NCBI GenBank assembly: GCA_948567375.1
Contig: OX419757.1
Coordinates: forward strand, 47,923,665-47,987,664
Direction of reading: 5' to 3'
Length of the DNA stretch: 64,000 nt
Origin: Lunularia cruciata
Lineage: Eukaryota; Streptophyta; Marchantiopsida; Lunulariales; Lunulariaceae
In this document: piece by piece, positions 1-51,746 of the stretch
Numbering within the stretch: position 1 is the first letter of the stretch
How the letters are laid out: every line of letters starts with the position of its first letter
Position numbers and translations under genes: made by a program
Notes under the pieces: model-generated
Told to the model about the DNA's origin: nothing
Seen by the model: the letters and a program-made list of their open reading frames with translations, nothing else
Databases searched by the model: none

Positions 1-599
1 TGTTCCACTCCTCCACTAAAGGCACAACTTCCTTAATCAAAATTGCTTCACATCAAGTCAGTGTTGCACTCACAAATGCAAAATACTTCCAACACTACAA
101 TTCCTTTCAGATCTGTCAAGGCATTGCTCTGATTGCACTTCACTCAAGATCAAACACACCAAATGAAGATCAAGGCTACGGAATCCAACATCCAACAAGC
201 ACATTGACTTGCACTTCAAAATTCTCTCAACACTCACAAACACACACACATAGAGTTGATACTTGGAATCAAGTTTAAGCGACAAGCACTGAAACCAGCA
301 CTTCACTTTATCTATCTTCAAAATTGTGAATACTAAATAATATAAAATTGCAAATTCCTCCTTTAAATAGTCAAGCAATTGAAAGTTGCTTCCAACTATA
401 CCATGCTACAATAATTTTTCTAACATGTAGATCCAAAATGACAAGGCACCTTTTCATATCTGCCTCTTCATATCTCAATCTGTATCTAATCCGATTCGAT
501 GTCAACTTTGACTTCAACTTCCAAACCCAATGATCTTCCTTCAAGAATTTCCCCTTCTTCAGCTCTATCTTCAACTACAAAATCCTTCACTATTTCTAC

Positions 600-2658
600 T
601 TCTTCTTCACTATGAACTTCAATTGAGGTCATGGGTAACCTTTCCAACTCTTTATCTTCCGACCCATCGACTCTTCTCTAATATCTCACGTTACAACTCC
701 AAAGACACATGCACTCCTACTTCTACTACTTTGGACTTCTTATCTTCCTTCACACTACTATAAAATCTCTCTAACTCTGAATTCACCAAGTCTAATCTGA
801 GACTTACATTGTCTCCTACCTCCACATCTTCCTATCTACTCTTTCCCTTAAACGAATCAGAAGAGTGTTCATATCTACATCTTTTGCTCTACTCTTCCAA
901 GTTTCTTGCACAAGAAATTTCAATTTGTGCAGTCTTGCTTCCTCAAACTTTCCTTCAGCCTCCGTGCTCAGCATGGCTCACAATCTTCCAACAACTTCTC
1001 CTACTGATTTTGATGCATACCCCTAAGAGTGTTCTACCTTCAACTTTTCTTGGTACATCTTCAACTCTTCTTTATACTCAGTAGCAAGCATCTTCTCCTC
1101 CTCCACATGCTGAGAACTTTGCAGCTCAGCACTTCTTACCAATCCTTGCAATCTTTCTTCCTCTTGGTAATGGATCAATAACTCTGTCTGCCATGCTTGA
1201 TCTTTTCCTATTGCACTCTTCTTCAAGCACTCTAACAGCAATGCTCAAGCACTCTAGCAATGCTAACTCTGTAACTCATGCTCCATCATAGCTGCCATCA
1301 CTTTCACATAAATACTTTTGATGCAAACTTCACTGACCTCCTCTTTCATCTTTGCCAGCAACATCATTTGCTCCTTCAACTTTGCGTCTTGACTGTGCAT
1401 CTCTCTTCCCTCTTATCAAAACTCTCTTGCAAATTCTCTAAAGTCTTCTTCTTCATGATGGCATCCACCCAAAGCTCCTCAGCTTCTTCTTCTCTTTGGG
1501 TCACAGTCTCCCCTAATCCTTTCACTTCATCTAGCAGATACTTCATCTTCATATGATCTTGCAGAATTACCTTCTACTGCACCTTCAACAGCTCCAACAA
1601 TGGAGTCACAATTTGTGTTAAATATTGTACTCCCCCAAAGCTCCCTTCATTTTTGGCTTTGTCTTTGTACTTTGTTTATTTTGTCGTTGCCTTCTCCCAA
1701 AGTCTTGATCTTAGTACTTTGAGTGGTATTGCTTCCAAGCTTTCTTCTTCCTTATAGATTGAACTCGAACCTGCAGGGTCTTCCATTATTGACTTCTTGC
1801 CACTACCTCCCTTTTGGTCTTCCTTCTTTGGCTTTGCATCCATCTCCTCCATAGCCAATTTTAAACAAGGATTATCTCCTCCACCCATACGATCAATTGC
1901 CGCATGTAATGCTTCATCTTCTACTTCAATTGATTGTTGAACTTCCTCTTCACCATCACTCTCACTTCTGGATCCCCCACTTTGTAGTGTGAGCTCCGCT
2001 TCTTCTGAGTCTTCTCTTCTAGACTCTATCTCACTTTCAAACTCTATATTTTAGGTCTCCTACTTCACCGCCTTCTTACTCCACGGATTGAGTCTTTGGG
2101 TCTTCTCTTGTGGCTAAGGCAAGGCTACCTCTTTGTATTTAGTCCACTTCTTTGTCTTTGGACTTCTTCCTTCCTCCATCTCCCTTTGTCTTGTTCAGAT
2201 GAAGTGATCATTACTGGCTTGCAGTTGTATCATGTATTGCCGCTCTTCTTCATTCGCTTCTCGTCGTAGATCAAGATGGAAATGTGACACCATGCGATGC
2301 TTTGCTTCCGCTGTCAACAAATTCAATCTGAAGTAGAAGTGTGTTGCAAATAGTGCGAAGTAATGTAGAGGTGAATTGGTTCTCCAATTGATGATCATTT
2401 GCCTCATTCACTGGTGGAAGCACTTTGCCCAATTCACCTTCGCTCTTGCAACATCTAGGAGAAGAAGATTGCCTACTACATGTTCACGTATGTTGTTTGT
2501 TTGGGTTTGAACATGGCCATTATTGCTCCTACAATGCTTCATTTAATTGGGTCTTGATAGGACTCCACTTTGTAACCATTGTTAGTACGCAGGGTGAAGA
2601 ACAAATTTCTGATTTCCGCAGTCTCCTTTGTAGCATCACACTTCCAATAGAAGGTGAT
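600..2658 (-). pseudogene. LTR-borne coiled-coil protein, decayed reverse copy
   Basis: Reverse-strand relatives of the coding region at 3209-7048 can be followed in pieces. Examples are an acidic Ser/Glu stretch around 1920-2060, Glu/Lys-rich coiled-coil stretches at 1023-1241, and a segment near 2195-2407 like the conserved HYFALFATHFYFRLNLL block of the N-terminal domain. The frame is broken many times by stops and small indels. The upstream part continues across the inserted solo LTR at 7841-8330. Function is not recognised. It is listed because it shows that the coding block is a standing component of this LTR family and not a chance capture in one copy. Confidence 0.6.
2654..2658. repeat. 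Target-site duplication GTGAT, left copy (right copy 7841-7845)
   Basis: GTGAT lies directly before the TGTGG start at 2659 and again directly after the TCACA end at 7840. This 5-bp direct repeat is the usual size for Ty3/gypsy integration. It fixes both ends of the giant LTR independently of homology. Confidence 0.85.
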
Positions 2659-3043
2659 TGTGGTGCCCACATTTTTTGTTTTTTTTCAAAATAAAGGAGA
2701 AGTGTATAAAGAAGTCGGATTGCGCCTGTATGGCTGAAGAAGGCAAAGAAAATTGTCTTCGGGATGAAACCCAAAGTAAAGTGACTTCGGGTCATAAGGC
2801 GAAGTACTCAGAAATGCCGTGTCAGCACACAATACGAAGTAACTTGTCTTCAGATCGGGGGGGAGCTCAACCCGAGGCGAAGACAGTCTAACAACCTTTT
2901 GTCGGGGCGAGAAATTCAAGAAGGGGCCGTTTCAAAACTGGTGGCTCATACGCGTGAAGGTTGATTGACAGTGACAGGTGCATGCCGTAGGTGTGATTTC
3001 TTGGTAGAATTTCAAAGTGACGGAAGACGAAGAATTGCAACTC

Positions 3044-3051
3044 TATAAAAA
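3044..3051 (+). promoter_or_regulatory. TATA box upstream of the LTR-borne coding region
   Basis: TATAAAAA lies about 165 bp before the ATG at 3209. The reverse copy R1 keeps a CTATAAAA box at the matching place (minus strand, about 8301-8309), followed by the same gene start. Conservation in two copies supports a separate promoter for the gene within the LTR. No transcript evidence is available. Confidence 0.5.
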
Positions 3052-3208
3052 TCAAAACTGCAACGACAAAATGTCGAGCAATTTTCCTTTGCCGTTGAGG
3101 AGTCGTCTTGTAGGTGATCGGGGAAAGGGAAATAGAGTTGGACTCAAGTTAGTGCGCAAGGGAGAAGTTGCGAGTGAGAAATCGAGAGACAGTAAGAAAG
3201 CATAAGAG

Positions 3209-6200
3209 ATGGGAGGAGGGAAGAAGAACTCTGAATTTGCAGTGAGAAATCATGCAATTTGGAGATTAGATATAATAGTGAGGATCAAAGTCTTGAGCCG
3301 ACTTCGGATCACTTTTCTGGCATGGAACTGGAACGTAAGTCTTCTAGGATTCATGACAAAAATCATCAAGAGTAAATGTCTCGATGGTCCCGAGGAAGAA
3401 GGGAAGAGAGGAAATCCGGCTCGCTGGACAAAGTCGGATTGGAGACTCGTACTCGGGAAGGAGGCGGGTTTGGAGCAGGGAGCCACGTTCTTGGGGAAAG
3501 GAGAGATAGCCCAAGAAACGCAGGAGGTGAGAGATGCCTTCTCGTCAAAGAGAACAAAGAATGGGTACAAAGTGGAGAGCTACAAAGACCCTATGAGGAG
3601 AGGAATTGTGAGTGCACTAATGGTCATCCTGAAGCCGGAGAGAACCACTTATGTGATGAAACACCAAGCGGTGTTCTTTCACAAGTTATTTGTAGGAGAA
3701 CCGATCAACTGGGCAAGGTGTTTTCACGGGAGAACAAGGCAAATGGTGTGGAATCTGTGGGACAAGTTGCCTCCCCACTACATCGTACCATTTGCAGCAC
3801 ATTTCTACCTCGGGTTGAATTTGCTCAATTTGGCAGAGCGCAATAGAATGGTGTCTCATTTCCATCCTGACTTGAGAAGAGAAGTCAACGCGGAGGAGCA
3901 GCAATACATTCTCCAAATCCAGAGCACGGACAACTACTACACAAAGATAGGGAAAAACGTGGAGATCGTTGTAAGTACCCCGACAAAGAAGAGAACTCAG
4001 CAAGCAGAAGCCGAAGAAAACAAGAAACCCCAGAAGATGCAAAAAAATAACCCGAGGCGAGGAATGGTGGTGATTGAGTCAGAAGATGAAGACTCAAAAG
4101 GCGAAGCCGAGCTCAAGACGGAGGACTCGGAACGTGAGGAGGAACCTGAGCTGACACTGTAGAGTGGAGATACTAGCAGTGACAGTGAAGACGGTGGAGA
4201 AATGACCTCGGCACCAGTGGCTGAAGAATACAAAGAAGAAGTGCAAGCCGAAGTAGAAGCCGAAGACAATGTGGCGCTGGAAGACAAAGTACCGGTGCTC
4301 GAGGAGAAGAAGATCGCAGTACAGCGAGGAGTTCGCTCGAGACGTAAGGCAAAGTGTGAAGTGGGGCCGAGTAGAGTGAAAGAAGAGGTAGAATGAAGCT
4401 CGGGCAGTGAGGCGTCAATTCTGATACGAAGACTCCAGAGAAGAAGGCGGGTATCGGGAGAAAACGAAGAAAGAAGAGAGACCACTCCGTGGGAGGAAGA
4501 AGTTGCCAGTAATGGAGTAGATTACCTGCAAGAAGTAGTGTACCCGCTGTTGGTGAAGTTGGAATAGAAGAAGAAGGAGATGCAGTCTACTTGTCCAGAG
4601 GTAAAGACTGTTTTGCAGGTCTTATCAAGATTAGAAGAAGAGAACTCGGAGTTGAAGAAGCGTGTAACCCGAGGCGAGGAGGAGAGAGAAGTACTACGAG
4701 CGGAAGCAGTAGAGAGAAGTCAGGTAATCGAAGACCTAAAGAGAGAAGTGAGTTATCGAGAGGATCTTGCGAGGAAGAGTGACATCACAAGGGAGAGACA
4801 AGTAGCTGAATTTGAAATCTTGAAGCAATAGTTTGTTGATTCAAGAGTAGAGCTTATCCATGCTATGGCGAGGGTAGCATCGAAGGATCAAGAGCTCGAT
4901 CGAGTGATGGAAAGTATGGAGGAGAAGAAGCAACTCTAGCAAAGAGAGTTGTCTGTGCGGTATAGAGACAAAGAGAGATTATGAGAATTACTTAGTAATC
5001 AGGAAGAGAAAATTGTACAGAAGGAGAAAGAGAAGGAAGCGGTGAAGGCCGAGTTCGAAGAAGAGTTGGCGATGTACAGAGAGGAATGGCTTGCAGATTG
5101 GGAACTGATCAACTGGGCAAGGTGTTTTCACGAGAGAACGAGGCAGATGGTGTGGAATCTGTGGGACAAGTCGCCTCTCCACTACATTGTACCATTTGCA
5201 GCACATTTCTACCTCGGGTTGAATTTGCTCAATTTGGCGGAGCGCAATAGAATGGTGTCTCATTTCCATCCTGACTTGAGAAGAGAAGTCGACGCAGAAG
5301 AGCAGCAATACATTCTCCAAATCTGGAGCACAAACGACTACTACGCGAAGACAGGGAAAAACGTGGAGGTCATTGTAAGTACCCCAACGAAGAAGAGAAC
5401 TTGGCAAGCAGAAGCCGAAGAAAACAAGAAACCTCAGAAGATGCAGAAAAATAACCCGAGGCGAGGAATGGTGGTGATTGAGTCAGAAGATGAAGACTCA
5501 AAAGGCGAAGCCGAGCTCAAGACGGAGGACTCGGAACTTGAGGAGGAACCTGAGCTGACACTGCAGAGTGGAGATACTAGCAGTGACAGTGAAGACGGTG
5601 GAGAAATGACCTCGGCACCAACGGCTGAAGAATACGAAGAAGAAGTGCAAGCCGAAGTAGAAGCCGAAGACAATGTGGCGCTGGAAGACGAAGTACCGGT
5701 GCTCAAGGAGAAGAAGATTGCAGTACAGCGAGGAGTTTGCTCGAGATGTAAAGTGAAGTGTGAAGCAAGGCCGAGTAGAGTGAAGGAAGAGGTAGAAGAA
5801 AGCTCGGGCAGTGAGGCGTCAATTCCGATACGAAGACTCTAGAGAAGAAGGCGGGTATCGAGAGAACACAAAGAAAGAAGAGAGACCACTCCACGGGAGG
5901 AAGAAGTTGCCTGTAATGGAGTAGATTACCTGCAAGTAGTAGTGTGCCCGCTGTTGGTGAAGTTGGAACAGAAGAAGAAGGAGATGCAGTCTACTTGTCC
6001 AGAGGTAAAGATTGTTTTGCAAGTCTTATCAAGATTAGAAGAAGAGAACTCGGAGTTGAAGAAGCGTGTAACCCGAGGTGAGGAGGAGAGAGAAGTACTG
6101 CGAGCGGAAGCAGTAGAGAGAAGTCAGGTAATCGAAGACCTGAAGAGAGAAGTGAGTTATCGAGAGGATCTTGTGAGGAAGAGTGACATCGCAAGGGAGA

Positions 6201-7048
6201 GACAAGTAGCTGAATTTGAAATCTTGAAGCAGTAGTTTGCTGATTCAAGAGTAGAGCTTATCCATGCTATGGCGAGGGTAGCATCAAAGGATCAAGAGCT
6301 CGATCAAGTGATGGAGAGTATGGAGGAGAAGAAGCAACTCTGGCAAAGAGAGTTGTCTGTGCGGTATAGAGATGAAGAAAGATTACAAGAATTACTTCGT
6401 AATTAGGAAGAGAAAATCATACAGAAGGAGAAAGAGAAGGAAGCGGTGAAGGCCGAGTTTGAAGAAGAGTTGGCAATGTACAGAGAGGAATGGCTTGCAG
6501 ATCGGGAACAAGAAAGAAAGACAAGATTGGAGCCATTGAAGGAAATAGTCCTCAGAGTAAACGCAATGTTAAGTACAGAAGCCAGCGTTCGAATTGAAGA
6601 AGCACGACTGCACGAGTTGAAGTTGTTGGTGTAGGAGACGAGGCAAAGACAAGCAAAAGATACTGATTTGAATGCCTTGTTAATTAGTCTCAGAACTCGT
6701 GTAGACAGAAAGATTTTAGAGGTAGAGGATAACATTTCAATTAGATTAGACTTAGTGAGAATAGAGCTAGAAAAGCTTCGGCAGGATGTTAAGGCAAAAC
6801 CCGAAGTAGATAACATAGGAATCCAAATGTCTTTGGAGTTGGCCTCAGAGACATTAGGAAAGAGTGGGTCGAAAGATGAAGAGTTAGATAGACTACCCAC
6901 TAGTGCAATTTCAGATCAGGAAAGAGAATTGCTAGATCTGGTCGAAGAAGCAGGAGATGTGAAACCCGAGGAAAATGTAGTAGGAAGTAAGATTACTTCG
7001 GGTTCGGGTTTGAAAGCCGAGGAAGAAGTAGACATCGGATCGGATTAG
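3209..7048 (+). pseudogene. Long coiled-coil protein encoded inside the LTR
   Basis: One reading frame of 3840 nt (1279 codons plus terminal TAG) runs with no frameshift and is broken by ten in-frame stops (first bases 4160, 4394, 4565, 4829, 4937, 4982, 5840, 6233, 6404, 6632). Order: an N-terminal domain of about 250 residues with Trp/Tyr/His-rich blocks (NWARCF, MVWNLWDK, FAAHFYLGLNLLN, VSHFHPDLRRE); a Lys/Arg-rich basic stretch; a Ser/Asp/Glu acidic stretch; a long Glu/Lys/Arg coiled coil; then a C-terminal leucine-rich region ending in an acidic tail. Middle domains appear twice because of a 1404-bp duplication; a single-copy form would be about 811 residues. The ATG context is matched in the R1 copy, which reads MVKKAENA against MGGGKKNS here. 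No PR, RT or IN motif is present. The family is not recognised. A gag-like or chromatin-binding role would be speculation. Confidence 0.65.
3703..6510 (+). repeat. In-frame 1404-bp tandem duplication inside the LTR gene
   Basis: Copy 1 is 3703-5106 and copy 2 is 5107-6510. The offset is exactly 1404 at three separate landmarks: GATCAACTGGGCAAGG at 3703/5107, GGAATGGTGG at 4061/5465, and TTGCAGAT at 5091/6495. 1404 equals 468 codons, so the frame is kept. The junction fuses the end of the coiled coil (EEWLAD) to the start of the NWARCF block. The copies look about 95% alike by eye. They share one stop (4829 and 6233), which therefore predates the duplication; most other stops are in one copy only. 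Confidence 0.9.
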
Positions 7049-7840
7049 TAACCAATTTGAGATTTGAAGGGGCAGATATGAAAGGTTGCATTGTCATTTG
7101 GGGTCTACAGGTTAGAACAGTTGTTGCAAAATGGTATAGTTGTTAGAACTATCAATTGTTCACTACTTAAGAGTGGCATTTGCATGAAATTGTTGTTCAG
7201 TGCTCATTATTTATGAGAATAGATAAAGCAAAGTGCTATGAAGCAGTGCTTGTCGCTTGAGCTTGATTCCGAGTATCAACTTTGTAATTGTGTTTGTGAA
7301 TGTTTGGAGAAATTTGAAGTGCAAGTCAATGTGCTTGTTGGATGTTGGATTCCACAACCTTGATCTTCATTTTGTGTGTTTGATCCTGAGTGAAGTGCAA
7401 TCGAAGCAATGCCTTGACAGATCTGAGAGGAATTGTAGTGTTGGTAGTATTTTGCATTTGTGAGTACAATGCGAAGTTGATGTGAAGCAATTTTGATCGA
7501 GGAAGTTGTGCCTTCAATGGAGGGGTGGAACACAATTTTGAGGCAAAGTTGTTTTGCAGTGAAGTGCCATTTTTGGGATAGCCTGAATCATCACAATCAA
7601 GATTGTTTGGAAAGATTTGATGGAGTTGTGATTAAGGAGTGTGAATTTGTGACAAGACTGCGAGTCAGTGCTTGTTACTCTCTTCTGGGTGTGGTTTCTA
7701 CCTAAGAGACTAAAGAAGAACTCAAGAAGAACTGAAATTGTTACTTTGCTTCGTATTTGGACATTACTGACTCGTATCTCTGCGGGAACGAACTTTACTT
7801 ACCCGATTATTGCAAAAGTGATATTTGCCGGGTTGTCACA

Positions 7841-8687
7841 GTGATCCTAGTTGCCTCTCCTACTTCTTTCCCAATATTTACCTCCAATCCGACTCAGTCC
7901 ATCAAGCCGGATTTCCTCTCTTCCCCTTGACTTCAAGGCCTTCCTTGCAATTATTGGCAGATATCTCTGCCATGACTCTTGAGAAACTGAAATTCCAAAT
8001 CTATGCTAAAAATATAATTCAAAGTCTATTCAAGACCTCGATCCTTACTATAACATCTAACCTCCAAATTGCAAAACTCCTCATTGCAAGTGCATTCTCA
8101 GCCTTCTTCACCATGATTATCTCTCTAGTTCTTTGGCACTGAAAAACCATCTCCTCTCTTGGACATGACACTCTAACCCCTTCTGGACTTTGGAAAATTT
8201 CACTCTCAATTGGCTTCTTGACGTGCATTACTACAGGACAACTACTCAAAGGAACAAGATATCTATTTGACATATTCAATTTCTCCCTACGTAGTTGCAA
8301 TTTTATAGTACCCCAAAGTGTAGTCATTCTTCAGTCAATTTCAAAATTGACTCCCACTTCTTCTGCATGCTGGTTTCCTATCACTCTCAAGGCCTTCTTC
8401 TCCTACCTCTGCCATTTCTTGAAGCATACTTTCTTGCCTCATAGAAAGGTTTTTACACCGTCTTTATATTGGCCTTTGCTTCCCAATCCAAAGATGCCTT
8501 TCTTTGGATTTGTCTCTTTGTAACCCCATCCGAGTACTTCTGGTTCCCAACCCCAAGTTGAGTTCTTTGGGTTTACTACAAAGACACACCAATCCATTCT
8601 TCCTTCATAATTTGGCTTTCTTTACTCACTTCTTCTTCAAAACTTTAACAAAACAAAACAAAACAAAACAAAAATATGGGTACCACA
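7841..8687 (-). mobile_element. Reverse giant LTR (LTR-D copy R1), right part with LTR start
   Basis: Continuation of the reverse copy 1-2658 after the solo-LTR insertion. Read on the minus strand it starts at 8687 with TGTGGTACCCATATTTTTG, has the TATA box at about 8301-8309, and then the gene start (minus-strand frame from 8327 downward, including AIWRLDVIVRIEVLNRL, which matches the forward copy AIWRLDIIVRIKVLSRL). Next to its outer edge lies a short (AAAAC)n run. It abuts the older forward copy at 8688, so it probably inserted into that copy. The matching duplication would be off the window. Confidence 0.75.
8648..8675. repeat. (AAAAC)n microsatellite
   Basis: About five tandem AAAAC units close to the start of the reverse LTR-D copy. 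Other copies have a plain T/A-rich run at this place, so the array grew within the LTR. Confidence 0.85.
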
Positions 8688-10762
8688 CCCAGACTTGTAG
8701 AAGTGAAGGAATCAACTTTGGAGGAGGAATTGGAAGGAGAAAAAGAGTCAAAGGGAGAAGCCTTAGGAGCAAAAGAGAAATTTACACTATGGAGCAAAGA
8801 GTCTAGCAGTGAAAATGAAGGAGAGGCCAAAGTTCAGCAATCAAGAGAAGGGGTTGTTGGAGAAGAAGAGCTGGAGTTTCATGAGGCCGCATGGAAGGTG
8901 GAGATAAGTTGTGTTTGAAATTGCCAATAGACAAGCTAGAAATGAACCATCATCTAAAAGTGAGGGATGAGTTAGAAGTAGTAATAAAATGGAATGAGGA
9001 GACCTTGGAGTTGATGAGTAAGCTAACCGGAGGAGAGAAGGAAGCTGAAGAAATTCAAGTTGAAGTAGTTCTTTGGAAGAAAAGTTAAAATGCCTTGTAG
9101 GAGAACTTTGTGAACTGCAGCAAAGAACTGAAGGAGCAAAAGACATTAGTCAAGAAAATGAAACGTGAAGTTGCTGATGTTTGAGTAGAGGTCATACACT
9201 CAAAGGTAATTGCAGCAATAATGGAGCAAGAGCTAAAGAGTTTGAAGAAGAGCATAGTAGAGAAAAACCAAGCTTAGCAATGATAATTGATAGAATGTAA
9301 TTGGAGGGAGGAATGATTATGGGGAGTGTGCTGAGGAGTTGAAGATGAATTAGTCCAATATGGGCAAGAGAAGGAGGCACTGAAGGTTGAATTTGAGGAT
9401 GAATTCACTATGTATCAAAACTAATTGGAAGTGGAGAGAAGTAAGGAGAAGGTAGTTCCAAATGTAGAGTTAGACGTAGTAGGAGCAATCGTGAAGGAGT
9501 TGAAAGTGATGCTAAGTACTAAAAGTCAAGGTGAATTAGAAGAGGCAAGGCTGCACAAGTTGAAGTTGTTGGTGCAAGAGACAAGAAAGAGGAAAGCAAA
9601 AGATGCAGAATTGAACAATCTTTTGATTCACTTAAGAGATTGAGTGATAGGAAAGTATTAGAGGTAGGAGACAATGTCTATCTCAGATTAGATTTTGTTA
9701 GATAAACTTTGTAGTGAGATGAAGACAAATAAGAAGTCCAAAGTCATAGAAGTAGGAGTGCAAGTGTCTTTGGATGAGTTATCTAAGGCATTAGAGAAGA
9801 GTGAGTTAGCGGATAAAGAAGTAGATAGATTACCATGTATGCCATTAAAGTTCAAATTGAAGAGATAGTAGAAATAGAAGATGTAGTATGAGTAGTAGAG
9901 AGACTAGAAGAAGAAGTACTTATAGGAACATTGGGTTTGGAAGCCAAATTTGAGGTTGACATTGGATCAAAGTTGTAATAGATTTGAGATTTGAAGAGGC
10001 AGATATGAAGAAGTGATTTGTCATTTTGGATCTATAGGTTGGTAAAGTTGTTGTAGAATTGTATTTTAGCTAGTAACTATTGAAGTGCTCTACCTATTTA
10101 AAGGAAGCATTTGCAATGTGTTGTTGTTCAATATTTGTATTTTTGAAGTTGAGTAAAGTGAAGTGATGTAACTAAGTGCTTGTCATTTCAACTTAATTCT
10201 AGGTATCAATCTTGTATGTGTGTTTGTGAGTGTTTGGAGAATTTTGAAGTGCAAGTGAGTGTTGGATGTTGGATTCCACATTTCTGATTTCATTTTGTGT
10301 GTTTGATCTTGAGTGGGTAGCAATCAAACCAATGCCTTGACAAATTTGAGAGGAATTGTAGTGTCAGTAGTAATTTTCATTGGTGAGCGCAACATGGGGT
10401 TGATGTGAAGTAAGTTTGATTGAGGAAGTTGTGCGTTCAATGGGAGGGTGAAACACAATTTTGAGGTAAAATTATTTCATAGTGAAGTAGCCTTCTTTGG
10501 AAAAATGTGAATCATCACATTCAAGATTGTTTGGAAAGATTTGATGGTGTTGTGATCATGAGTGTTAATTTGTGATGAGATTGCGAGTCAGTGCTTGTTA
10601 CTCTCTTTTGGGTGTGGTTTCTACTTGAGAGACTAAAGAAGAACTAAAGAAGAATTTTTTGGTTTTTTTACTTCATATTTGATCATTTCTGAATTGTATC
10701 TCTATGGGAAAAAACTTTTACTTACTAATTATTGCAAAAGTGATACTTGCTTTGTTATCACA
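8688..10762 (+). mobile_element. Older forward LTR-D copy, 3' part
   Basis: Starts abruptly at the R1 edge inside the acidic region of the LTR gene and ends at 10762 with TTATCACA, the decayed family end. Coding relics include an acidic stretch (8676-8918), coiled coil (8891-9088) and a C-terminal block (9425-9643, with LHKLKLLVQETRKRKAKD, matching LHELKLLV and ETRQRQAKD of 2659-7840). The last 757 bp (10006-10762) match 7079-7840 and contain a TATTTAAAG TATA-like box near 10097. It is more diverged than 2659-7840. On its right it abuts the 5' untranslated part of a chromovirus. Confidence 0.75.
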
Positions 10763-12514
10763 CTTGGTACTTCTAATTGTAACTTATGGAGAATGGTGGA
10801 CGTTGTGCATCTATGTGTTAGTAAATTAGATAGGTTGTGAGCATTGTGATAGAGTAGTAGCTATGGGGGCAATGACTGAGGTTATCATTGCTACGCAACA
10901 ACAAATCAAGCACCTTACTCAATTATTGGATAAATGAGACCAACAACAACAAGAGCATGTAAAGAGAGCACCATTTTGAGAAGGAGAAGACCAAACCTGA
11001 TTCCAAAATTCAAGGCATTTGATGGTAAGAATCTTTGGGGCATAGTGGGGAATTTTGTATTTGATTATGAATATTATTTGAGGTTACCAATTTTCAAGAT
11101 GAACAGAAACAAATTCTCTTAGCTTCAAGCCAATTGAATGGAGTAGCAAAGCTATGGAGTAATGCAAGCTGAAAGGTAGTTTGTTGCACCAATCTTGATA
11201 TGGAAAGAATTCAAGGCTACAGTAATTGGGCAATTCTAAGCAATAAATGCCACACAAGTTGCACAAGATAAGTTGGCAAAGTTGAAGCAAATTGGTTCTT
11301 TAAGAAGCTACATCTTGCAATTCTAGAACACCATTATGAAAATTCTAGATATAATGGATGGTGAAGCTCTCGATCAATTTTGAGGAGCTTGAAGTTACAA
11401 ACCAAATTAGAAGTGACTATGCAATAGCCAAAATACTTGGAAGAAGCCATGCAACAAGTAGAGTGCTTTGATTCCTTGGTTGCAACAACTTGGTCTTGAC
11501 CTTGACCTTCACAAACCCAACTAGCACATTACACACATGTGGAAGAGCTAGCACCAATGGAGATTGATGCCATTCAATGGAGACCACTTGATATAGCAGA
11601 CCGGGAAAGATTACAACAAAATAGCAGTTGCTTTTATTGTCACCAGATTGGACATTGGATTGTTGAATGTCCACTCAAGAATGGGCAATCTTGACAAATT
11701 GCCCAAATGGAGGTTGTGTAGCAGAATGATCAAGAAAACAAGGAATCCTAGTAGGAGATTTTGAGTCCCCTATTGGGAACTTGATTAGTTCTATTAGGAT
11801 TGAAAGCTTGACCTAAGCAAGTTTGCTTCACTTGCAAGGTACAATATCTGATTGTGGTTGTAGGATTTTGGTTGTTCAGAAATTGCATGTCTATGCAATT
11901 AGCAAAGGAATTGAGTATTCCTATCAAGCCAATATTGGAAGTAGATTGATGATGATGGATGGTAGAGAAGGTTCTGCATTTTGTACCTTGCATCTTGTTA
12001 CCTTCAAGATTGGGAAGGAGTATTTGGAGTGTATGAGGTTTATAGTGGCACCTTTGTACTATGATGTCATTTTGGGTTTGCCTTGGCTTGAACATCATAA
12101 GGTTCAATTTGATTGGAACCGACGGTAAATTCAAGTACAATACCAAGGCAAGAATTTCCAATTAGGTTGTTTGCCACATTTGAGTAAGACACCTAAGAAT
12201 AGTCAATCCCAAGATGAGAAGTTTGTTAGGAAAGCAGCCATAAAGCAAGCTTTGAAGGAAGATAAGTCTTAACATGAGAAATTTGTAAGTGAAGTAGCCA
12301 TAAAGCAAACTTTGAAGGAAGATAAGTCCATAAATAGAAATTTTGTCAATGAAATAGCTATAGAGCAAGCTTTGGAGGAAGGTAAGTCTATTTTCATTAT
12401 ATGGATCAAGCCGGTTGTACAAGGAAAGTCTGAAGAGGGTCAAGAGCCTCATCAAGCAATGGTTGATCAAAAAATTCAAGAGTTTGCGGATGTATTTCTA
12501 GATTATCTACCGAT
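10763..12514 (+). pseudogene. Chromovirus gag-protease fragment
   Basis: Decayed 5' part of a chromovirus of the same family as 29065-45614. Gag relics start near 10870 (IIATQQQIKHLTQLLDK) and include PKFKAFDGKN. A zinc knuckle CFYCHQIGHWIVEC (C-x2-C-x4-H-x4-C) is encoded from 11629. A retropepsin-like segment at 11823-12128 has FIVAPLYYDVILGLPWLE, which is typical of chromovirus proteases; the catalytic Asp-Ser/Thr-Gly reads DCG, so it is inactive. Homology to the other copy stops near 12514, shortly before the RT. No LTR of its own is attached: the left flank is LTR-D. Confidence 0.75.
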
Positions 12515-12540
12515 GCAATTAAAAACAAAAATATGGGTAC

Positions 12541-14899: not shown

Positions 14900-16772
14900 A
14901 TGTGGTACCAATATTTTTCATTTTGGATGAGTTTTGAAGAAGAAGTGCCTTGCTGAAACCAAATTGAAACCAAATGGAGAAGAAATGAGAGGAAATTTGT
15001 ATTTTGATCAAGCCCGAGGAAGTAGACTTTGTGTTAGATGAAGACAGACTCAGCCAAGATTGAAAGAGGGCAAACCCAAAGGAGGAATGGAAGTTATAGG
15101 TTGAGATTCTTGCGGGGGGCATATCTCAATGTCCACAAGTCCAAATCAAGCATGCTATATCTTGTAGGAAGCGTCTCATTTAGGGCTTTTTGTTGCCACC
15201 AAAATTGCAGCGTTTGGAGGTTTTTAGAAGAATTTAAAAGCATTTGAAGTTTTAGGAGTAGATGTACATAGTAAGTTAGTGTCTTCGGGTCTTCGGACTT
15301 GAGACTTTGGACTTTGGACTTGAGACTTGAGACTTTGGACTTCGGACTTCAAGTTTACACAACTTTGGGTTAGAAGCTTCTTTGCCTCAAGACAAAGATG
15401 ACCGTATCTGAGATAGTCGGACCCCGGAGTGCAATGAAGATGACTTTGAGAATCTTGCCAGAGGCATTAGAGAGAGTTAGGATAGAGAAAGAATAGATAG
15501 TTAGGATACCCATGACTTCAATTTCAGTTTTGATTGAAGATGGAATAGGAATTGAAGGAGAAGTAGGAGTGATGAATAAACCTACAGTGCAAGATCAAAC
15601 AATAAGTGTCTTTAGGTCAGTTACATGAGAGATTATGGGAAAGTGGGTTACAAATTGAAGGCGTAGATAGTGTACTCATGCTTTCAATTACAATTCTTGA
15701 TGAGGATATAGTAGAATTAGCAAAGGAATTGATAATAGTTAACTCCGATGTTACAGAAGTAGGAATTCATCAGACTTGCTATTTGACACATTAGAGACGA
15801 GTGGATCAGGAGATAAAGAGTTAGATAAATCACTCCTTAGTGTAATTGTAATTCCTAGTGTAGAAGTAGTAGAAGTAATGAAGGAATTGGTAGAACCAGA
15901 TATACGCAAAGAAGGAGAAGTGATAGGAAGATCATTGGGTTTGAAAGCTGATGATGAAGTAGACGTTGGATTGGGGTAGTAACAATTTTGAGATAGGAAG
16001 AGGCAGATATGAAAATATAGATTGTCAATTTGGATCTACAGGCAGGAAGAGATGTTAGGAAGGGTACAATAGGAAGAATTGTTGTTTGCTTCAGTATTTA
16101 AGGGGAGCATTTGCAGTATTATGTTGTTCAGTATTCAAATTTCTGAAGATAGATAAAGCAAAGTGTTGGTTTTTAGTGCTTGTCGCTTGAGCTTAATTCT
16201 GATTGTCAATTCTGTGTTTGTATTTGTGAGTGTGTGGAGAATTTTGAAGTGCAAGTCAGTGTGTCTAGGGATGTTGGATTTTGCAGCCTTGATCTTCATT
16301 CTATGTGTTTGATCTTGAGTGAAGTGCATCGGAGCAATGCCTTGACAGATCTGAGAGGAATTGTAGTGTTGGTAGTATTCTGCATTTGTGAGTGCAACAT
16401 GAAGTTGATATGAAGCAATTTTGATCAAAGAAGTTGTGCCTTCAATGGAGGAGTGGACCACAATTCCAAGGCAAAGTCGTCTTGCAGTGAAGTGCCGTCT
16501 TTGGGAGAATCTGAATCATCACAATCAAGATTTGTTTGGACAGAATTTGCTATGTTGTGATTATGGGTGTATGTATTCGTGACAAAATGTCAAGATTGTG
16601 AGCTTCTTACTCTCTTTTGGGTGTAGTTTCTACCTGAGAGATTAAAGATGCAACCAAGAAGAACTAAAATTGTTACTTTGCTTTGTATTTGACCAATTCT
16701 GAATTGTATCTCTGCTAGAATGAACTTTACTTACCCAATTACCGCAAAAGTGATATTTGTTGGGTTGTCACC
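14900..16772 (+). repeat. 5' LTR of the shrunken LTR-D element
   Basis: Begins TGTGGTACCAATATTTTTC and ends TTGTCACC (last base changed from A). It keeps about 380 bp of the LTR start, then the C-terminal coding tail at about 15400-15980, whose frame end LKADDEVDVGLG matches LKAEEEVDIGSD at 7048. It ends with the final 760-bp promoter-type segment from about 16010, with a TATTTAAGG box near 16097. The N-terminal and coiled-coil coding parts are deleted. Confidence 0.8.
15281..15352. repeat. Heptanucleotide minisatellite (GACTTNN)n
   Basis: About ten imperfect 7-bp units (GACTTTG, GACTTGA, GACTTCG and similar) in the LTR, located where the coding block is deleted. The array may mark or have helped the deletion. 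Confidence 0.8.
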
Positions 16773-16779
16773 TGATTTG

Positions 16780-16796
16780 TGGCACCGCTGCCAAGG
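16780..16796 (+). other. Primer-binding site, tRNA-Asp-like
   Basis: TGGCACCGCTGCCAAGG starts seven bases after the 5' LTR end. It begins with the TGG that pairs with a tRNA 3' CCA and resembles the plant tRNA-Asp PBS (TGGCGCCGTTGCCGGGG) with several mismatches. Position and sequence both support priming of minus-strand DNA. Confidence 0.65.
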
Positions 16797-16858
16797 TTAC
16801 AATCTTCAAAAGTGGAAGGATACAAAGTTTTGTTGTTATGTCGTAACAAAGGAGGAGA

Positions 16859-17242
16859 ATGAGGAGAATTTTCAACAATGTTCAAGAATTAAATCAAGAT
16901 TCAAAGGAATCTACTTCCTCTAAAGAGTTAGACAAGGAATCATGTTTTTGGAGTGAGTTGGAGCATATTGTGGCCACGAAATTGTGTGGATCACCAGCAA
17001 TTAACATATTTGAACTCCCATATCTTGAGAATGTGAATCCAAAGACACCTTTCCTTGAGTTCCAATTGTCACCTTTAGATTCTTGGCCACAGACGATGAA
17101 TTTAAATCTTGGAATGATTTGGAGTGGTCGTCGCCTTGTTTGGTTTGCAATTCTCCTTGTTTGGAAAAGAAAGAAAAAGAAAAAGAAAAAATTAGTTTAC
17201 AATAGAGGGAAGGAAGACTACAGATCTTTGAGCAAAACTTGA
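16859..17242 (+). CDS. Unrecognised ORF in the LTR-D internal domain
   Basis: A 127-residue frame starting MRRIFNNVQELNQ and ending in a lysine run (RKKKKKKKL) plus a short tail. It is the only sizeable frame in the 0.7-kb internal domain. No zinc knuckle, protease, RT or integrase motif is visible. It could be the remnant of a once larger gag-pol region or simply non-coding sequence that happens to be open. No second copy of the internal domain is present for comparison. Confidence 0.25.
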   Translation: MRRIFNNVQELNQDSKESTSSKELDKESCFWSELEHIVATKLCGSPAINIFELPYLENVNPKTPFLEFQLSPLDSWPQTMNLNLGMIWSGRRLVWFAILLVWKRKKKKKKKLVYNRGKEDYRSLSKT

Positions 17243-17466
17243 ATCAAAAGACAAAATCCTTGCTGGGCTACAATGATCCATTTGGAGGACTCAATTGAGC
17301 ATGTAGAGAATTGTCACTGCTTCATTATTGAAGCATTGACAAAGCCCACTTTAATTATTAATTTTGTGCATGATGTTGTTCAAAATTGAGCAAGAGAAAC
17401 AATGTCTTTGTCATTTTATTCATCTTGTTGAATCCTTGTTGTGTGTTTGCAGGGACGCTCACATTT

Positions 17467-17479
17467 GAGGGAGGGGGTA
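17467..17479 (+). other. Polypurine tract of the LTR-D element
   Basis: GAGGGAGGGGG followed by TA lies directly against the 3' LTR start at 17480. This is where a PPT must lie to prime plus-strand DNA. Confidence 0.8.
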
Positions 17480-17789
17480 TGTGGTACCCACATTTTTTAT
17501 TTTGGACAAGTTTGAAGAAGAAGTGCCTTGCTGAAACCAAATTGAAACCAAATGGAGAAGAAATGAGAGGAAATTTGTATTTTGATCAAGACCAAGGAAG
17601 TCGACTTTGTGTCAGATGAAGACGGACTCAGCCAAGATTGTAGTTTCTACCTGAGAGATTAAAGACGCAACCAAGAAGAATTGAAATTGTTACTTTGCTT
17701 TGTATTTGACCAATTCTGAATTGTTTTTCTGCGGGAACAAACTTTACTTACCAAATTACCGCAAAAGTGATATTTGTTGGGTTGTCACA
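17480..17789 (+). repeat. 3' LTR of the shrunken LTR-D element, internally deleted
   Basis: TGTGGTACCCACATTTTTT at the start and GTTGTCACA at the end in only 310 bp. The first 160 bp match 14900-15060 and 2659 onward; the last 150 bp match the final 150 bp of 7840 and 16772. One short repeat therefore holds both ends of the family, which is strong evidence that they are the two ends of a single LTR. Confidence 0.85.
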
Positions 17790-31093: not shown

Positions 31094-32328
31094 CTATAGT
31101 TGCTCCTCCCATTGATGAAGTTGACTTTTCATGTGTTTCAAATGTAATGTTGCAACAAGGGCTTGTGATTAGTTTGCATGACTACTTGTTTCCCCAAGAG
31201 AAAATGCCTCCATACCTTGGAGGCATATACCATTGCTAGTTGTTCCCAATCCTAAGCACAATAATTCCTTACCATTGTATATAGTCTACAAGATACAAAG
31301 GCAATGGGATGCAATCCATCTATGAATTCTTGTTGCAACACAGCTCCAATTGCAAAGTAAGAAGCATCAAAATCAACCACACATGATAGTTGAGGATTAT
31401 ATGGTTGAAGACTTGGTCTTGAAGACACCATACGTTTCAGCTTTTGAATGCTTCTTTGTGCTTACTAGTCCATTGAAAGCTTTGGTTCTTCTCCAAGAGA
31501 TCATTCAATGGTGCGGCCACATGAGCATAGCAGCAGATGAACCATTGGTAAAATCTAGCCAATCCATTAAATGCTCATAATTTTGTAGCATCCTTTAGAA
31601 TAGGCCAATCAATGATGGCCTTGATCTTCTCCTTTTCCATCTTGATCCCCTCCAATGAGATCTTGTGACCCAAGAAGGTAATTTCCTTTTGCCAAAAGGC
31701 ACATTGTGGCTTCTTGCAATAAAACTTCCATTGTTGTAGTCATCTTAGGACTTCTTGCATGTGATTCATATGTTCTGCCTCTGTCTTGCTATAAATTAAG
31801 ATATCATCCAAGAACACCACCACGTACCAATCCAACAATCCATCCAACACCTAATGCATCTAATCCATGAAGACTATTGGAGCATAAGTGAGCCCAAAAG
31901 GCATAACTCTCTACTCAAAATGTCATTTTCAATCCTCTCTATCAATAGAGATTTGCCAATAGCCACTACAAAGATCCAACATAGAGAAGTATCATGCTCC
32001 ACTCAATTGATCAAGCAAGTCATCAATTGAAGGCAAGGAGTATGCATTCTTCACTATTTTTTTTATTGAGCCCACAATAATCAATACAGAAACAAAGTCC
32101 TCCATCCTTCTTTGGAATGAATAGTATCAGTGTTCCCCAAGGAGATGTACTATGTTGTATGAAATCCTTCTCCAACAACTCCATGAGTGTTGTTTGCAAC
32201 TCCTCCAACTCCTTTGGTGAGAGCCAATAGATTGGTCTACTTACTTGAGTACTCCTTGGTAATAACTCAATCTTGAAGGGCATACCATGATTAGAATATA
32301 ATCCCTTTGGTAGATAATCTAGAAACAC
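31094..32328 (-). pseudogene. Chromovirus reverse transcriptase and RNase H remnant
   Basis: The start is readable at 32023-32328: FLDYLPKGL, then PRSTQVSRPIYWLSPKELEE and SPWGTLILFIPKKDGGL, the first RT motifs. The catalytic box FLDDILIYSK is encoded on the minus strand with its two Asp codons at 31808-31803. Several stops and indels split the frame between 32020 and 31100. It is inactive. Confidence 0.7.
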
Positions 32329-32340
32329 ATTTGCAAACCC

Positions 32341-32859: not shown

Positions 32860-33706
32860 AGATATTCAATTCTTTGAACCAAAATCCTACAACCACGATC
32901 ACATATTGTGACAACCCAGCAAATATTAGTTTTGTGGTAATCAGGTAAGTAAAGTTTGTTCCTGTAGAGATACCGGTCAAAAATGTCCAAATACAAAGTC
33001 AAATATCACTAATGTGGTTCTTCTTAATTTCTTCTTTAGACTCTTGAGTAGAAACCACACCCAATAGATAGTAACAAGCATTGACTTGCAGTCTTGTCAT
33101 GAATAAGCACTCTTAATCACAAATCCATCAAATCTTTCCAAACAACCTTGATTGTGCTGATTCAATCTCTCCCAAAAATAGCTACTTCACTGCAAAACAA
33201 CTTTGCCTCAAAATTATATTCCACCCCTCCACTAAAGGCACAACTTCCTCCATTAGAAATTGCTTCACATCAACTCAATGCTGCACTCAACAATTGCAGA
33301 ATACTACCAACACTACAATTCCTTTTAGATATATCAAGGCATTGCTTTGATTGCACTTCACTCATGATCAAACACACAAAATGAAGATCATGGTTGTGGA
33401 ATCCAACATCCAACAAGCACATTGACTTGCACTTTGAAATTCTCCCAACACTCACAAACACAAACACATAGCTGATACCTAGAATTAAGCTCAAACAACG
33501 AGCACTGCTTCACAACACTTTGCTTTATCTGTTCTCACAATTATGAGCACTAAACAAAATGGTACTGCAAATGCTACCTTTAAATAGGCAAATCACTTGA
33601 TAGTTATCTAACTTCCTAAACTACTTCGTAACAACTTTACCAACTTGCAGATCCAAAATGACAATGCACCTCTTCATATTTGCCCTTCGAAATCTCAAAT
33701 CTGTTA

Positions 33707-35844
33707 CTACTCCAATCCCATGTCTACTTCTTCTTTGGCTTCCAAACCTGAAGTAAATTCACATATTACTCTATCCTTGGGTTTTACAACTACTAACTCT
33801 TTTACCAATTCTAACACCTCTTCCCCTTGATCTGCAATTACCATCATGGGTAACCTACATACATCTTCTTCTTGCAACCCATCCTTCTTTAATATCTCCA
33901 ATGGCAACTCCAAAGACATTTTTACTCCTACTTCCTCTACTTCAAGTTTCACTCTTACATCTTTCCGAAGTTTATCTACCCATAACTTAACTAGGTCTAA
34001 TCTAATCGTGATATTGTCTTCCACTTCCAATATCTTCCTATCTACAAGAGTCCTAAGACTAATCAGTAATGCATTCAAGTCCTTATCCTTTGCATTTCTT
34101 CTCCTCGTCTCCTGCACCAACAATCTAAACTTGTGCAACCTTGTTTCTGCAATTCTTATATTGGCTTTGGTAGTTAGCATTGCATTCATCTTCACTACTA
34201 TCTCCTTCAATGGCTCAAGTCTCATCCTTCTTTCATGTTCCCTATCCGATTGCCATTCTTCTCAGTACATTGCTAGTTCTGCCTCAAACTCGGCCTTCAC
34301 ATTTTCCTTCTCCTTCTCTTTCTACACTACCTTCTCTTATAGATTACAAATTAGTTCCCGCAATCTTTCTTCTTCTCTATACCACACTATTAACTCTATT
34401 TGCCAGAATTGCATCTTCTCTTCTACACTCTACATCACTTGGTTGAGTTCCTGCTCCTTCTCTGCTACCCTTGCCATGGCGTGGATGACTTCTATTTGAA
34501 AATCAACAAATTTTTGCTTCAAGATTTTGTACTCAACTAATTTTTTTTCCATGGCTATGACCTTTTGCTCTATTAGTCTATCTTTACTCCCCACTTCTCT
34601 CTTTAAATTTTCAATTATCTGATTCTGTACTATTGCATCTACTTGTAGTATTTCCCTTTGCTCCTCTCCTCGGGTTATACAGTCCTTCAAACTCCAAGTG
34701 TTCAACTTCTAACCGCTCCAGCACCTACAATGCAGTTGTTACCTTGGGATCCTCTGGTTGCATTTCTTTCTTCTTCTCCTCCAGCTTCATCAATGATGGG
34801 TAGACGAACCCCTATAAATACTCCACCCCTCCAGTCTGGTTCCCTTCTTCTTGTGGGCTTTTCTCATTCTTTGTCTCTTCTTTGCATGACATTCTCTTTT
34901 CAAAGGGAGTTGTCTGATCGGAATTGATCTCTTGCTCACCTAACTCTCACTTTCTATTTCGTTCCTCTAGCTTTTCCCCACCTCATGCATTGCATTTCTT
35001 CTTGATCTGATTCCTCCTAGATGATAACCTTCTTCTCCAACTTCTTTGGAACTTCCTCTTCTTCTTTCTAGTTATCTTTGTCTGCAATCTCCGGCTTTCC
35101 CTCTTCTTGCTCTGGTATTGGCTGCATCTCCTCTTTGTCCTCACTCTCACTACTCACTTCACCACTTTGCAATGTGAGTTTGGGTTCCTCTTCTCTCTTT
35201 GAGTCTTCTAACTTGTACTCGGCCTCACCTTCTGGTTCTTCCTTTGACGATGTTATTACCACCATGTCCTTCTTTGGGTTCACTTTCCTGGTCTTCGGTG
35301 GTCTCGCCGCCACCACTTCTTCTTTGGATTGACCCCTCTTCTTTGACTTTGGAGCAGTCACCACCAATCTCACACTTTGCTTTGTCTGTGCATAGTACTC
35401 ATCACAGCTTCTAATCTGAAGAATGTATTGCTGCTTGTCCACATCAACATCTCTCCTCAAGTTGGGATCGAAGTGCAACACCATCTTTTGTTGCTCTACT
35501 GCATTTAGTAGATTCAATCCCAAGTAAAAATGGGCTGCAAATGGTGCAATGTAGTGTGGAGGCGTCTTATCCCGTAAATTCCACACTATCTATCTCATGG
35601 GTTGATGAAAGGACTTTACCCAATTGATGGGTTCCCTTGCAAACATCTTATAGAAAAACACCATTTAGTGTTCATCATATAAGTAATTTGCTCCAGCTTG
35701 AAGATGGCCATCATTGCTCCTACGATGCCTCTCCTCACAGAGTCCTTATAACTCTTGACCTTATATCTATTCTTTGTGCATTTTGAAGAAAAGGTGTCTC
35801 TTACTTCTTGGGTTTCTTTAGCAACCTCTCCTTTCCCCAAGAAT
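33707..35844 (-). pseudogene. LTR-borne coiled-coil protein, R2 copy
   Basis: Third copy of the LTR-D coding region, best preserved apart from the duplicated one. Frames: 35616-35840 (N-terminal part), 35068-35586 (172 codons: TPPHYIAPFAAHFYLGLNLLN, basic and acidic parts), 34430-34705 (coiled coil) and 33707-34225 (C-terminal part, ending EAKEEVDMGLE). It has no internal 1404-bp duplication, so the single-copy arrangement is ancestral. At the site of the shared stop of the forward copy (4829/6233) it has a sense codon (LKQKFVD). At least one frameshift and several stops are present. Confidence 0.65.
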
Positions 35845-35944
35845 GGGGCTCCTTGCTCCTCACCAGCCTCTCTTCCGAGTACTCACCTCCAATATAACTC
35901 TATCCAATGAGCTGGATTTCCTCTCTTCCCTTTTGCCTCAGGTT

Positions 35945-43753: not shown

Positions 43754-43929
43754 GGTCTCTCTAGACACTTACTTTCTATTATCTTGGTCATGAATCTTGG
43801 AAAGCTAAGGTTCCAGTTCCATGCTAGAAATGTAATCCAAAGTCTGCTCAAGCTTTGATCTTGGCATTCACATGTAACCTCCAAATTGCATGATTTCTAA
43901 TTAAAAATTGTGAGGTGGAAAGACTTATA

Positions 43930-45000: not shown

Positions 45001-45187
45001 TTCACCTGTGTACATAAGTTACAACCAAAAGTATCACACGTTCCTCATACAAGGTGATTGCATGTAGAAAATCTTGCCCAAAGCATGGGGTGATGAATTG
45101 TGTGAAACAATGCTTTGGTAGTACTTGGACACAAAAATCCCAATGGTTTGGCGGAGGTGGATTTGGTGGTCCATAAATTCCATCTAT

Positions 45188-45209
45188 CCCATTCTTGCTC
45201 TAATACCAA
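45188..45209 (-). other. Primer-binding site of the chromovirus (initiator-Met type)
   Basis: On the minus strand TTGGTATTAGAGC follows directly after the 5' LTR end ...TTTTACA. It matches the common TGGTATCAGAGC initiator-Met PBS with one change. Confidence 0.8.
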
Positions 45210-51742: not shown

Positions 51743-51746
51743 TTTT

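What the first reader, a model, noticed from the sequence alone, without database searches (positions are those of the whole stretch)
2659..7840. A protein-coding region carried inside a giant LTR
The segment has LTR ends (TGTG...CACA) and a perfect GTGAT duplication, yet contains a long coiled-coil frame (3209-7048) with its own upstream TATA box. The same coding block lies inside three other LTR copies (1-2658 with 7841-8687; 8688-10762; 32907 to about 43899). The 14900-17789 element proves the LTR boundaries independently (PBS after one end, PPT before the other, CACAA duplication). LTRs normally carry only regulatory sequence; retroviral cases such as MMTV sag show that U3 genes are possible, but a plant retrotransposon with an ~800-codon gene in its LTR would be unusual. 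Every full element would carry two copies of the gene, and every solo LTR would keep one.
Basis: partly seen in the sequence, partly recalled or inferred. Interest (0 to 1): 0.87.

Follow-up and report, generated by a model that had tools for sequence, protein, structure and literature searches.

The report
Retrotransposon gene housed inside its LTRs
In what is likely a liverwort genome, an abundant retrotransposon family carries a protein gene inside its long terminal repeats, so full copies hold two and leftover single repeats hold one; selection has kept the protein, which is predicted to help the element, and such repeats normally hold only control sequence.

Summary
Window 2659-7840 is a solo LTR (TGTGG...GTTGTCACA) with a perfect GTGAT duplication. 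In the same 566-Mb genome, four full-length relatives have ~3.8-kb LTRs, a tRNA-Asp-like PBS, a polypurine tract and a ~6.1-kb interior (gag-pol in the two interiors read), with perfect 5-bp duplications at the outer LTR edges; both LTRs of all four carry the frame. A fifth candidate pair was two separate insertions. The frame is about 858 codons, starting at window 3071 rather than 3209. The window copy is decayed (stops, a 1,404-bp in-frame tandem duplication). Between copies the frame evolves with dN/dS 0.14-0.35, while shifted frames give 0.62-1.41 and the R-U5 part shows no codon phase; the two LTRs of one element diverge without phase. So the gene was selected in active copies and decays after insertion. 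No relative of the protein was found; it has no transmembrane segment and a long predicted helix. Function and expression are inferred. By position it works like the U3 gene sag of MMTV but is not shown to be its relative. None of the papers my searches listed was seen to describe a plant precedent.

The parts
2654..2658 (.). target-site duplication GTGAT, left copy
2659..7840 (+). solo LTR, 5182 bp (the other LTRs read with a full or nearly full gene are 3.2-3.8 kb)
   Evidence: TGTGG/CACA ends and perfect TSD; family edges proven in four full elements
3044..3049 (+). TATAAA, predicted promoter of the LTR gene; TATAA(A/G) at this place in 16 of 18 LTRs (not in B6, B7)
   Evidence: function inferred
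   Evidence: frame and stops; ATG at this place in most A and 3 of 4 B LTRs
3698..5101 (+). first unit of in-frame 1404-bp tandem duplication inside the gene
5102..6509 (+). second unit of the duplication (94% identical)
7049..7840 (+). conserved non-coding end of the LTR, predicted to hold the genomic-RNA promoter, R and U5
   Evidence: no codon-phase bias and higher conservation than the gene; R and U5 limits inferred
7163..7172 (+). second TATA-like box position (CTATTTAA or GTATTTAA in 15 of 18 LTRs; CTACTTAA here), predicted genomic-RNA promoter
   Evidence: function inferred
7841..7845 (.). target-site duplication GTGAT, right copy
7841..8687 (-). 5' part of an older LTR of the same family (TGTGG at 8687) into whose gene the 2659-7840 LTR inserted
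1..2658 (-). rest of that older LTR; its end lies 303 bp left of the window
8688..10762 (+). 5'-truncated LTR of the family with the C-terminal half of the gene
14901..17789 (+). short non-autonomous element: 5' LTR 14901-16772, 707-bp interior, 3' LTR 17480-17789, TSD CACAA; gene mostly missing
32907..35944 (-). 5'-truncated LTR with the gene, interrupted by a large repeat block; remainder about 43760-43920

Best explanation
Window 2659-7840 is a decayed solo LTR of a Ty3/gypsy retrotransposon family whose LTRs hold a gene of about 858 codons, found in both LTRs of the full-length copies read and kept by purifying selection between lineages, and this gene likely makes a helical accessory protein from its own TATA promoter. 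Shown: the LTR limits, the gene in both LTRs, gag-pol between them, and selection on the protein. Inferred: the genomic RNA starts at the second TATA-like box downstream of the gene, so the gene lies in U3; reverse transcription copies U3 from the 3' end of the RNA into both LTRs, so each new insertion carries two copies. The protein could be made from the U3 promoter in either LTR (and in a solo LTR), or from a spliced form of the genomic RNA in which it is the last frame. Because short elements that lack most of the gene but have perfect target duplications exist, the protein is probably supplied in trans or is not needed in cis. A role in particle assembly, RNA binding or counter-silencing is a guess.
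For: Four full elements (C7+, C2+, C7-, C6+): outer TSDs CTGCA, GGGAT, GAGAT, AATAT, all perfect; PBS TGGCGCCG(C/T)TGCC after each 5' LTR; GAGGGAGGGGGTA or its last bases before each 3' LTR; LTR pairs 96.5-97.4% identical. The two LTRs of one element share 775-851 aligned codons of the gene. Interiors of two of them: gag, CCHC knuckle, protease-like stretch below Pfam's cut-off, RT, RNase H, integrase. 39 of 40 scored places (of 7,874 candidates) join interior/PPT, LTR start and gene start; they include 3' LTRs of three of the four elements, and the query itself spans these parts, so this is a number of places, not a rate. 512 exact PPT|LTR 30-mers against 0 in the control. Selection: 17 between-copy pairs give dN/dS 0.14-0.35 (16 computable, one dS saturated), shifted frames 0.62-1.41, CDS phase p from 4e-3 to 1e-30, R-U5 phase p >= 0.15; four same-element LTR pairs show no phase bias (p 0.28-1.0). 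Ten solo-LTR candidates: TSD perfect in 5 (window, A1, A4, B6, B7), 4 of 5 bases in 4 (A3, B2, L040, the older window LTR), none in B1.
Against: No transcript or protein data. The TATAAA starts only 27 bp before the first ATG in the window copy, so a start at the usual distance would fall on or after that ATG; the second in-frame ATG (3209) may be the real start. Two of four B LTRs lack the TATA motif, and B6 also lacks the ATG. Coiled coil is weakly supported: one long helix is predicted with confidence, but heptad periodicity is not significant (best 84-residue stretch 61 of 1000 shuffles). The N-terminal fold could not be predicted (pLDDT 34). The four full elements were chosen because they had two gene hits about 9.9 kb apart. 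The between-copy pairs mostly share one member and are not independent.
Confidence: 0.8

Rival explanations
1. The true LTR is only the last ~760 bp, and the gene belongs to the internal domain (for instance an env-like third frame), so that 2659-7840 is a truncated element.
For: The last ~790 bp are the best conserved part between subfamilies, and a stretch just after the gene's stop resembles the PPT|LTR junction (14 of 20 bases, 2 of 200 local shuffles, chosen after the fact), so this may have been the ancestral state.
Against: PPT and LTR start lie upstream of the gene, the gene is in both LTRs, and TSDs match at the outer edges of these long LTRs in 4 of 4 true pairs.
Confidence: 0.02
2. 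The frame is a passenger: a captured or chance open frame in U3 that is copied with the LTR but does nothing.
For: About 76 of 125 scored copies carry a stop in the first 317 codons after 3209 (hand count); short elements that lack most of the gene but have perfect target duplications exist (window 14901-17789; C1:104587-109319); no known domain or relative.
Against: Codon-phased divergence and dN/dS 0.14-0.35 between copies, absent in shifted frames, in the R-U5 part and in same-element LTR pairs.
Confidence: 0.05
3. The gene is real and selected, but is expressed only as the 3'-terminal frame of the genomic RNA (spliced, like env, nef or sag), and the U3 TATAAA is not a promoter, so solo LTRs are silent.
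For: By position the gene is the last frame of an RNA that would start at the second TATA-like box; TATA to ATG distance is short and two of four B LTRs lack the motif. Third frames of LTR retrotransposons are typically expressed from spliced messages (PMC5408684, passages).
Against: TATAA(A/G) sits just upstream of the start in 16 of 18 LTRs, in both subfamilies, although the U3 around it has diverged to 51-56% identity between A and B.
Confidence: 0.35
4. The protein is an envelope-like third frame moved into U3.
For: It sits between integrase and the 3' end of the RNA, where env-like frames of plant elements lie (recalled).
Against: No transmembrane segment (maximum 19-residue hydropathy 1.32, none above 1.6); charged and partly helical.
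Confidence: 0.03

Closest known systems
MMTV superantigen gene (sag) in the U3 of a betaretrovirus
   Same: Most of a protein gene lies within U3, hence in both LTRs, and several promoters for it are reported; LTRs are otherwise ordinarily non-coding (PMC4667437, passages).
   Different: Host probably a liverwort; protein about 858 codons, no transmembrane segment, no similarity found; the frame lies wholly inside the LTR; no env gene recognised in the two interiors read.
Wheat RLG_Wilma / WHAM / Sabrina complex (Ty3/gypsy)
   Same: tRNA-Asp PBS and non-autonomous partners that encode unusual short proteins (PMC9744471, passages).
   Different: There the unusual frames take the place of the GAG-Pro gene, and wheat LTRs are typically 0.5-2 kb; here the frame is in the LTR of an element with gag-pol.
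Bdelloid rotifer LTR retrotransposons with ORF3 (env-like, GDSL, DEDDy, coiled-coil, transmembrane)
   Same: An extra frame besides gag and pol, in one type with a coiled coil (PMC5408684, passages).
   Different: LTRs there are 159-551 bp, too short to hold such a frame; the passages do not place ORF3 in the LTR.
Cassandra elements
   Same: A functional unit is carried inside plant LTRs (PMC10853983, abstract in search listing).
   Different: The unit is 5S rDNA-related sequence giving a promoter, not a protein gene; the elements are non-autonomous.
Riccia sorocarpa and Calypogeia fissa Ty3/gypsy polyproteins
   Same: Closest named pol relatives, best 69% and 50-55% identity.
   Different: Whether their LTRs hold the gene is unknown; no relative of the LTR protein was found in the same database.

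Membership tests
Ty3/gypsy LTR retrotransposon | LTRs with TG...CA ends and 5-bp target duplication | tested here: met
   TSD perfect in 4 of 4 full elements; the first bases are mutated in one of them (P4 5' LTR)
Ty3/gypsy LTR retrotransposon | PBS after the 5' LTR and polypurine tract before the 3' LTR | tested here: met
Ty3/gypsy LTR retrotransposon | gag, protease, RT, RNase H, integrase in that order | tested here: met
   PF03732, PF19259, PF00098, PF00078, PF17917/PF17919, PF17921, PF00665 along L041/L042; the protease hits (PF13650, PF13975) lie below their cut-offs
Athila/Tat (OTA) lineage | tRNA-Asp primer binding site | tested here: inconclusive
   TGGCGCCG(C/T)TGCC fits the plant tRNA-Asp 3' end as recalled; the host tRNA was not fetched
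Athila/Tat (OTA) lineage | place in an RT tree; no chromodomain | not tested
   no tree built; one integrase-side piece gave no Pfam hit
Retrovirus-type U3 gene (MMTV sag-like arrangement) | selected protein-coding frame inside U3, present in both LTRs | tested here: met
   that this part of the LTR is U3 rests on the inferred start of the genomic RNA
Retrovirus-type U3 gene (MMTV sag-like arrangement) | homology to the Sag protein | tested here: not met
   no Pfam family at E <= 1 for the 778-residue frame; no solved-structure relative; no direct comparison with Sag was made
Retrovirus-type U3 gene (MMTV sag-like arrangement) | own transcript or promoter | not testable with these tools
   TATAA(A/G) in 16 of 18 LTRs; no RNA data
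LARD/TRIM non-autonomous elements | no coding capacity | tested here: not met
   the two interiors read have gag-pol; window 14901-17789 and C1:104587-109319 are short derivatives that come near this kind

The most novel reading that the evidence does not exclude
A plant Ty3/gypsy family has moved a selected accessory gene with its own promoter into U3, so the gene is amplified twice per insertion and survives when the element is deleted to a solo LTR; the many LTRs left in the genome would form a dispersed pool of helper genes that outlives the elements themselves. A PPT-like stretch just after the gene's stop codon would be the relic of the old LTR start, meaning that the LTR grew by a shift of the polypurine tract across a former third gene.
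Probability: 0.3. Interest if true: 0.9.

Novelty: new variant of a known kind. Interest (0 to 1): 0.8.

Why it matters
LTRs are ordinarily non-coding, and repeat masking discards them (general knowledge). Here about two thirds of the LTR is coding frame, and the two LTRs of one element give a built-in neutral control, so selection before insertion and decay after it can be separated copy by copy. It makes testable whether a retrotransposon can keep expressing a protein from solo LTRs, and how a gene comes to lie in U3.

Tried and rejected
Internal domain beside the window copies: the gag stretches at 10763-12540 and 43957-45036 were first taken for this family's interior but belong to another family (they match each other; the second lies behind a different LTR-like stretch with a TGGTATTAGAGC primer site, Met-type as recalled). 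The 32907 copy was examined as an insertion with an empty site; its 5' part is missing, so no TSD test was possible. The C11 pair (5.9 kb apart) was rejected as one element. Pfam, PDB and two searches of 5.8 billion proteins gave no relative of the LTR protein; those two scored only candidates sharing short words. Weak Pfam hits of one piece (coiled-coil families, one deaminase family at E 0.017) were not believed, all below cut-offs. The N-terminal structure model was too poor for a fold search, and no fold search was run. A heptad test was not significant. The PBS-side twin was asked nine times and never answered. Literature: (listings) and passages of four papers; in these I saw no description of a protein gene inside a plant LTR; most subscription journals are not held. 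Searches failed on argument form.

The window copy was left out of the LTR alignment used for codon counts, because its tandem duplication disturbs the alignment; codons with stops or gaps were dropped.
Full report
What is in the window. The segment 2659-7840 has TGTGG...GTTGTCACA ends and a perfect GTGAT duplication. It lies inside another LTR of the same family on the minus strand, which starts with TGTGG at 8687, resumes at 2658 and ends 303 bases left of the window, 3,808 bp in all, with CTGGG/ATGGG flanks, 4 of 5. The frame 3209-7048 is a decayed coding frame: 11 stops in 1,280 codons, none of them TAA, against 101 and 61 in the other forward frames and 33-39 in the reverse ones. It holds a 1,404-bp in-frame tandem duplication, 94% identical, so the ancestral frame is shorter than the window suggests.

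The family in the genome. The window lies on contig C6 of a 566-Mb assembly. A search with the 317-residue first piece gave 24,554 first-look candidates; only 125 were scored, and all 125 match at E <= 4e-191; by my hand count about 49 of those 125, the window itself among them, have no stop in the matched stretch. An exact 30-base PPT|LTR junction occurs 512 times, its reversed control 0 times. In 200 kb of C1, taken around the first listed TGTGGTACC sites after one search had shown LTR matches at some of them (so not a random sample), 25 LTR 3' parts were found, and 17 have at least 150 residues of the gene within 3.3 kb upstream; neighbouring nested copies are counted together in some cases, such as 107417.

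Full elements. Five pairs of same-strand hits were fetched as separate LTR stretches. Four are single elements: the 5' LTR ends in GTTGTCACA followed by TGATTTTTGGCGCCG(C/T)TGCC; the 3' LTR is preceded by the polypurine tract; the outer flanks repeat perfectly (CTGCA, GGGAT, GAGAT, AATAT). The TGTGG start is mutated in P2's 3' LTR, P3's 5' LTR and P4's 5' LTR. LTR pairs are 96.5-97.4% identical, with transitions far in excess (88:5, 106:7, 96:14, 116:17), as expected of methylated DNA (inference). The fifth pair was two different insertions. Interiors read for two elements (6,171 and 6,104 bp fetched) encode gag, a CCHC knuckle, a protease-like stretch, RT, RNase H and integrase. Solo LTRs: of 10 candidates, 5 have perfect duplications (window, A1, A4, B6, B7), 4 have 4 of 5 bases (A3, B2, L040, the older window LTR) and 1 has none (B1).

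The gene. In the four elements the frame starts at LTR base 415 (P1 numbering) and runs about 858 codons to a stop 0.8 kb before the LTR end; the first residues (MSSNFPSPL in P1, MSSRFPIPL in B2) are alike in A and B copies. An ATG stands at this place in 16 or 17 of 18 LTRs (B6 lacks it; A3 has an insertion there). In the window this ATG is at 3071. A 3' LTR with an open frame of 778 codons, shortened by an in-frame deletion, exists as found. TATAA(A/G) lies 27-34 bases before the ATG in the LTRs where both were seen, and is present in 16 of 18 (not B6, B7). A second box, CTATTTAA or GTATTTAA, lies about 115 bp after the stop in 15 of 18 LTRs; the window copy, A1 and A4 have one substitution. 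I infer that the second box starts the genomic RNA, which puts the gene in U3.

Selection. LTRs were aligned without the window copy. In 17 between-copy pairs the frame gives dN/dS 0.14-0.35 (one pair has saturated dS); the same codons read in shifted frames give 0.62-1.41. Substitutions fall on third positions (for example 158/127/350 for P1 against A1), while the R-U5 part shows no phase (p >= 0.15 in all 17). The four pairs of LTRs from the same element show no phase (19/19/19, 22/23/21, 18/18/27, 30/21/31), and their dN/dS of 0.38-0.60 is like that of their shifted frames, 0.44-0.78. The weakest between-copy case is P1 against S5 (p 0.004). Pairs share members, so the p-values are not independent. 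Reading: the protein was under purifying selection in the copies that transposed, and each inserted copy then decayed freely.

Against my reading. gag-PR-RT of P1 and P4 shows dS 0.056, dN/dS 0.47 and no phase bias, whereas their LTR genes show dS 0.134 and dN/dS 0.26: the LTR genes have diverged more than the interiors, which suggests exchange of LTRs or faster evolution and is unexplained. Short elements without most of the gene moved (window 14901-17789, CACAA/CACAA; C1:104587-109319, ATCAT/ATCAT with primer site and polypurine tract), so a full gene is not needed in cis. The generality count (39 of 40 scored places, of 7,874 candidates) uses a query that itself joins PPT and gene start, so it shows number, not frequency.

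The protein. No Pfam family, no PDB sequence and no relative among the scored candidates from 5.8 billion proteins, although the same database returned plant pol proteins. No transmembrane segment; charged; a central part is modelled as one long helix at mean pLDDT 82, from two nearly identical window rows. The coiled-coil label is therefore a prediction. The part INWARCFH...PHYIVPFAAHFYLGLNLLN is strongly conserved among the window pieces compared.

Host. The pol piece is 69% identical to a Riccia sorocarpa protein, and most of the named hits that follow closely are Calypogeia fissa; both are liverworts.

Comparison with the known. The nearest arrangement is the sag gene of MMTV, most of it in U3, with several promoters reported, in LTRs that are ordinarily non-coding (PMC4667437, passages). 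This element works like that by position, but no relationship of the proteins was found, so it is not filed as a member. In the paper searches nothing listed was seen to describe a protein gene inside a plant LTR. I therefore call it a new variant of a known kind.

Noticed in passing
window 35945-63326: Very large repeated blocks: 35945-43762 matches 51064-58874 (96%), and 54419-58866 matches 58866-63326 (97%), with shorter internal repeats; part of it interrupts the 32907 LTR copy.
   Followed up: no
window 3698-6509: 1,404-bp in-frame tandem duplication inside the LTR gene of this copy; the 17 other LTRs aligned are 3.2-3.8 kb and so carry no such second unit.
   Followed up: partly
window 10763-12540, 43957-45614, 32309-32906: gag and protease-like stretch of a second Ty3-like family behind a different LTR-like stretch and a Met-type primer site (recalled); copies of the studied LTR lie in or beside it.
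   Followed up: partly
window 12211-12390: Three 60-bp tandem units in that second family.
   Followed up: no
C1:145414-149221 (L023): One LTR has CCCTAAACCCTAAAC, a plant telomere-type repeat (as recalled), just downstream of its TATA box; the other aligned LTRs lack it.
   Followed up: no
L031/L041 versus L037/L042: Two elements with nearly the same gag-pol (dS 0.056) have LTR genes more than twice as diverged (dS 0.134), as if LTRs were exchanged between lineages.
   Followed up: partly
C2:31230822-31232117 and C2:31240768-31242063: Two LTR starts 9,946 bases apart on one strand both have the interior end and PPT upstream, as if elements lay in tandem with a shared LTR.
   Followed up: no
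window 7049-7080: Just after the gene's stop, ATTTGAAGGGGCAGATATG resembles the PPT|LTR junction ATTTGAGGGAGGGGGTATG; possible relic of an older LTR start.
   Followed up: partly
window 14901-17789; C1:104587-109319: Short non-autonomous members that lack gag-pol and most of the LTR gene, yet keep LTR ends, primer site, polypurine tract and perfect target duplications.
   Followed up: partly
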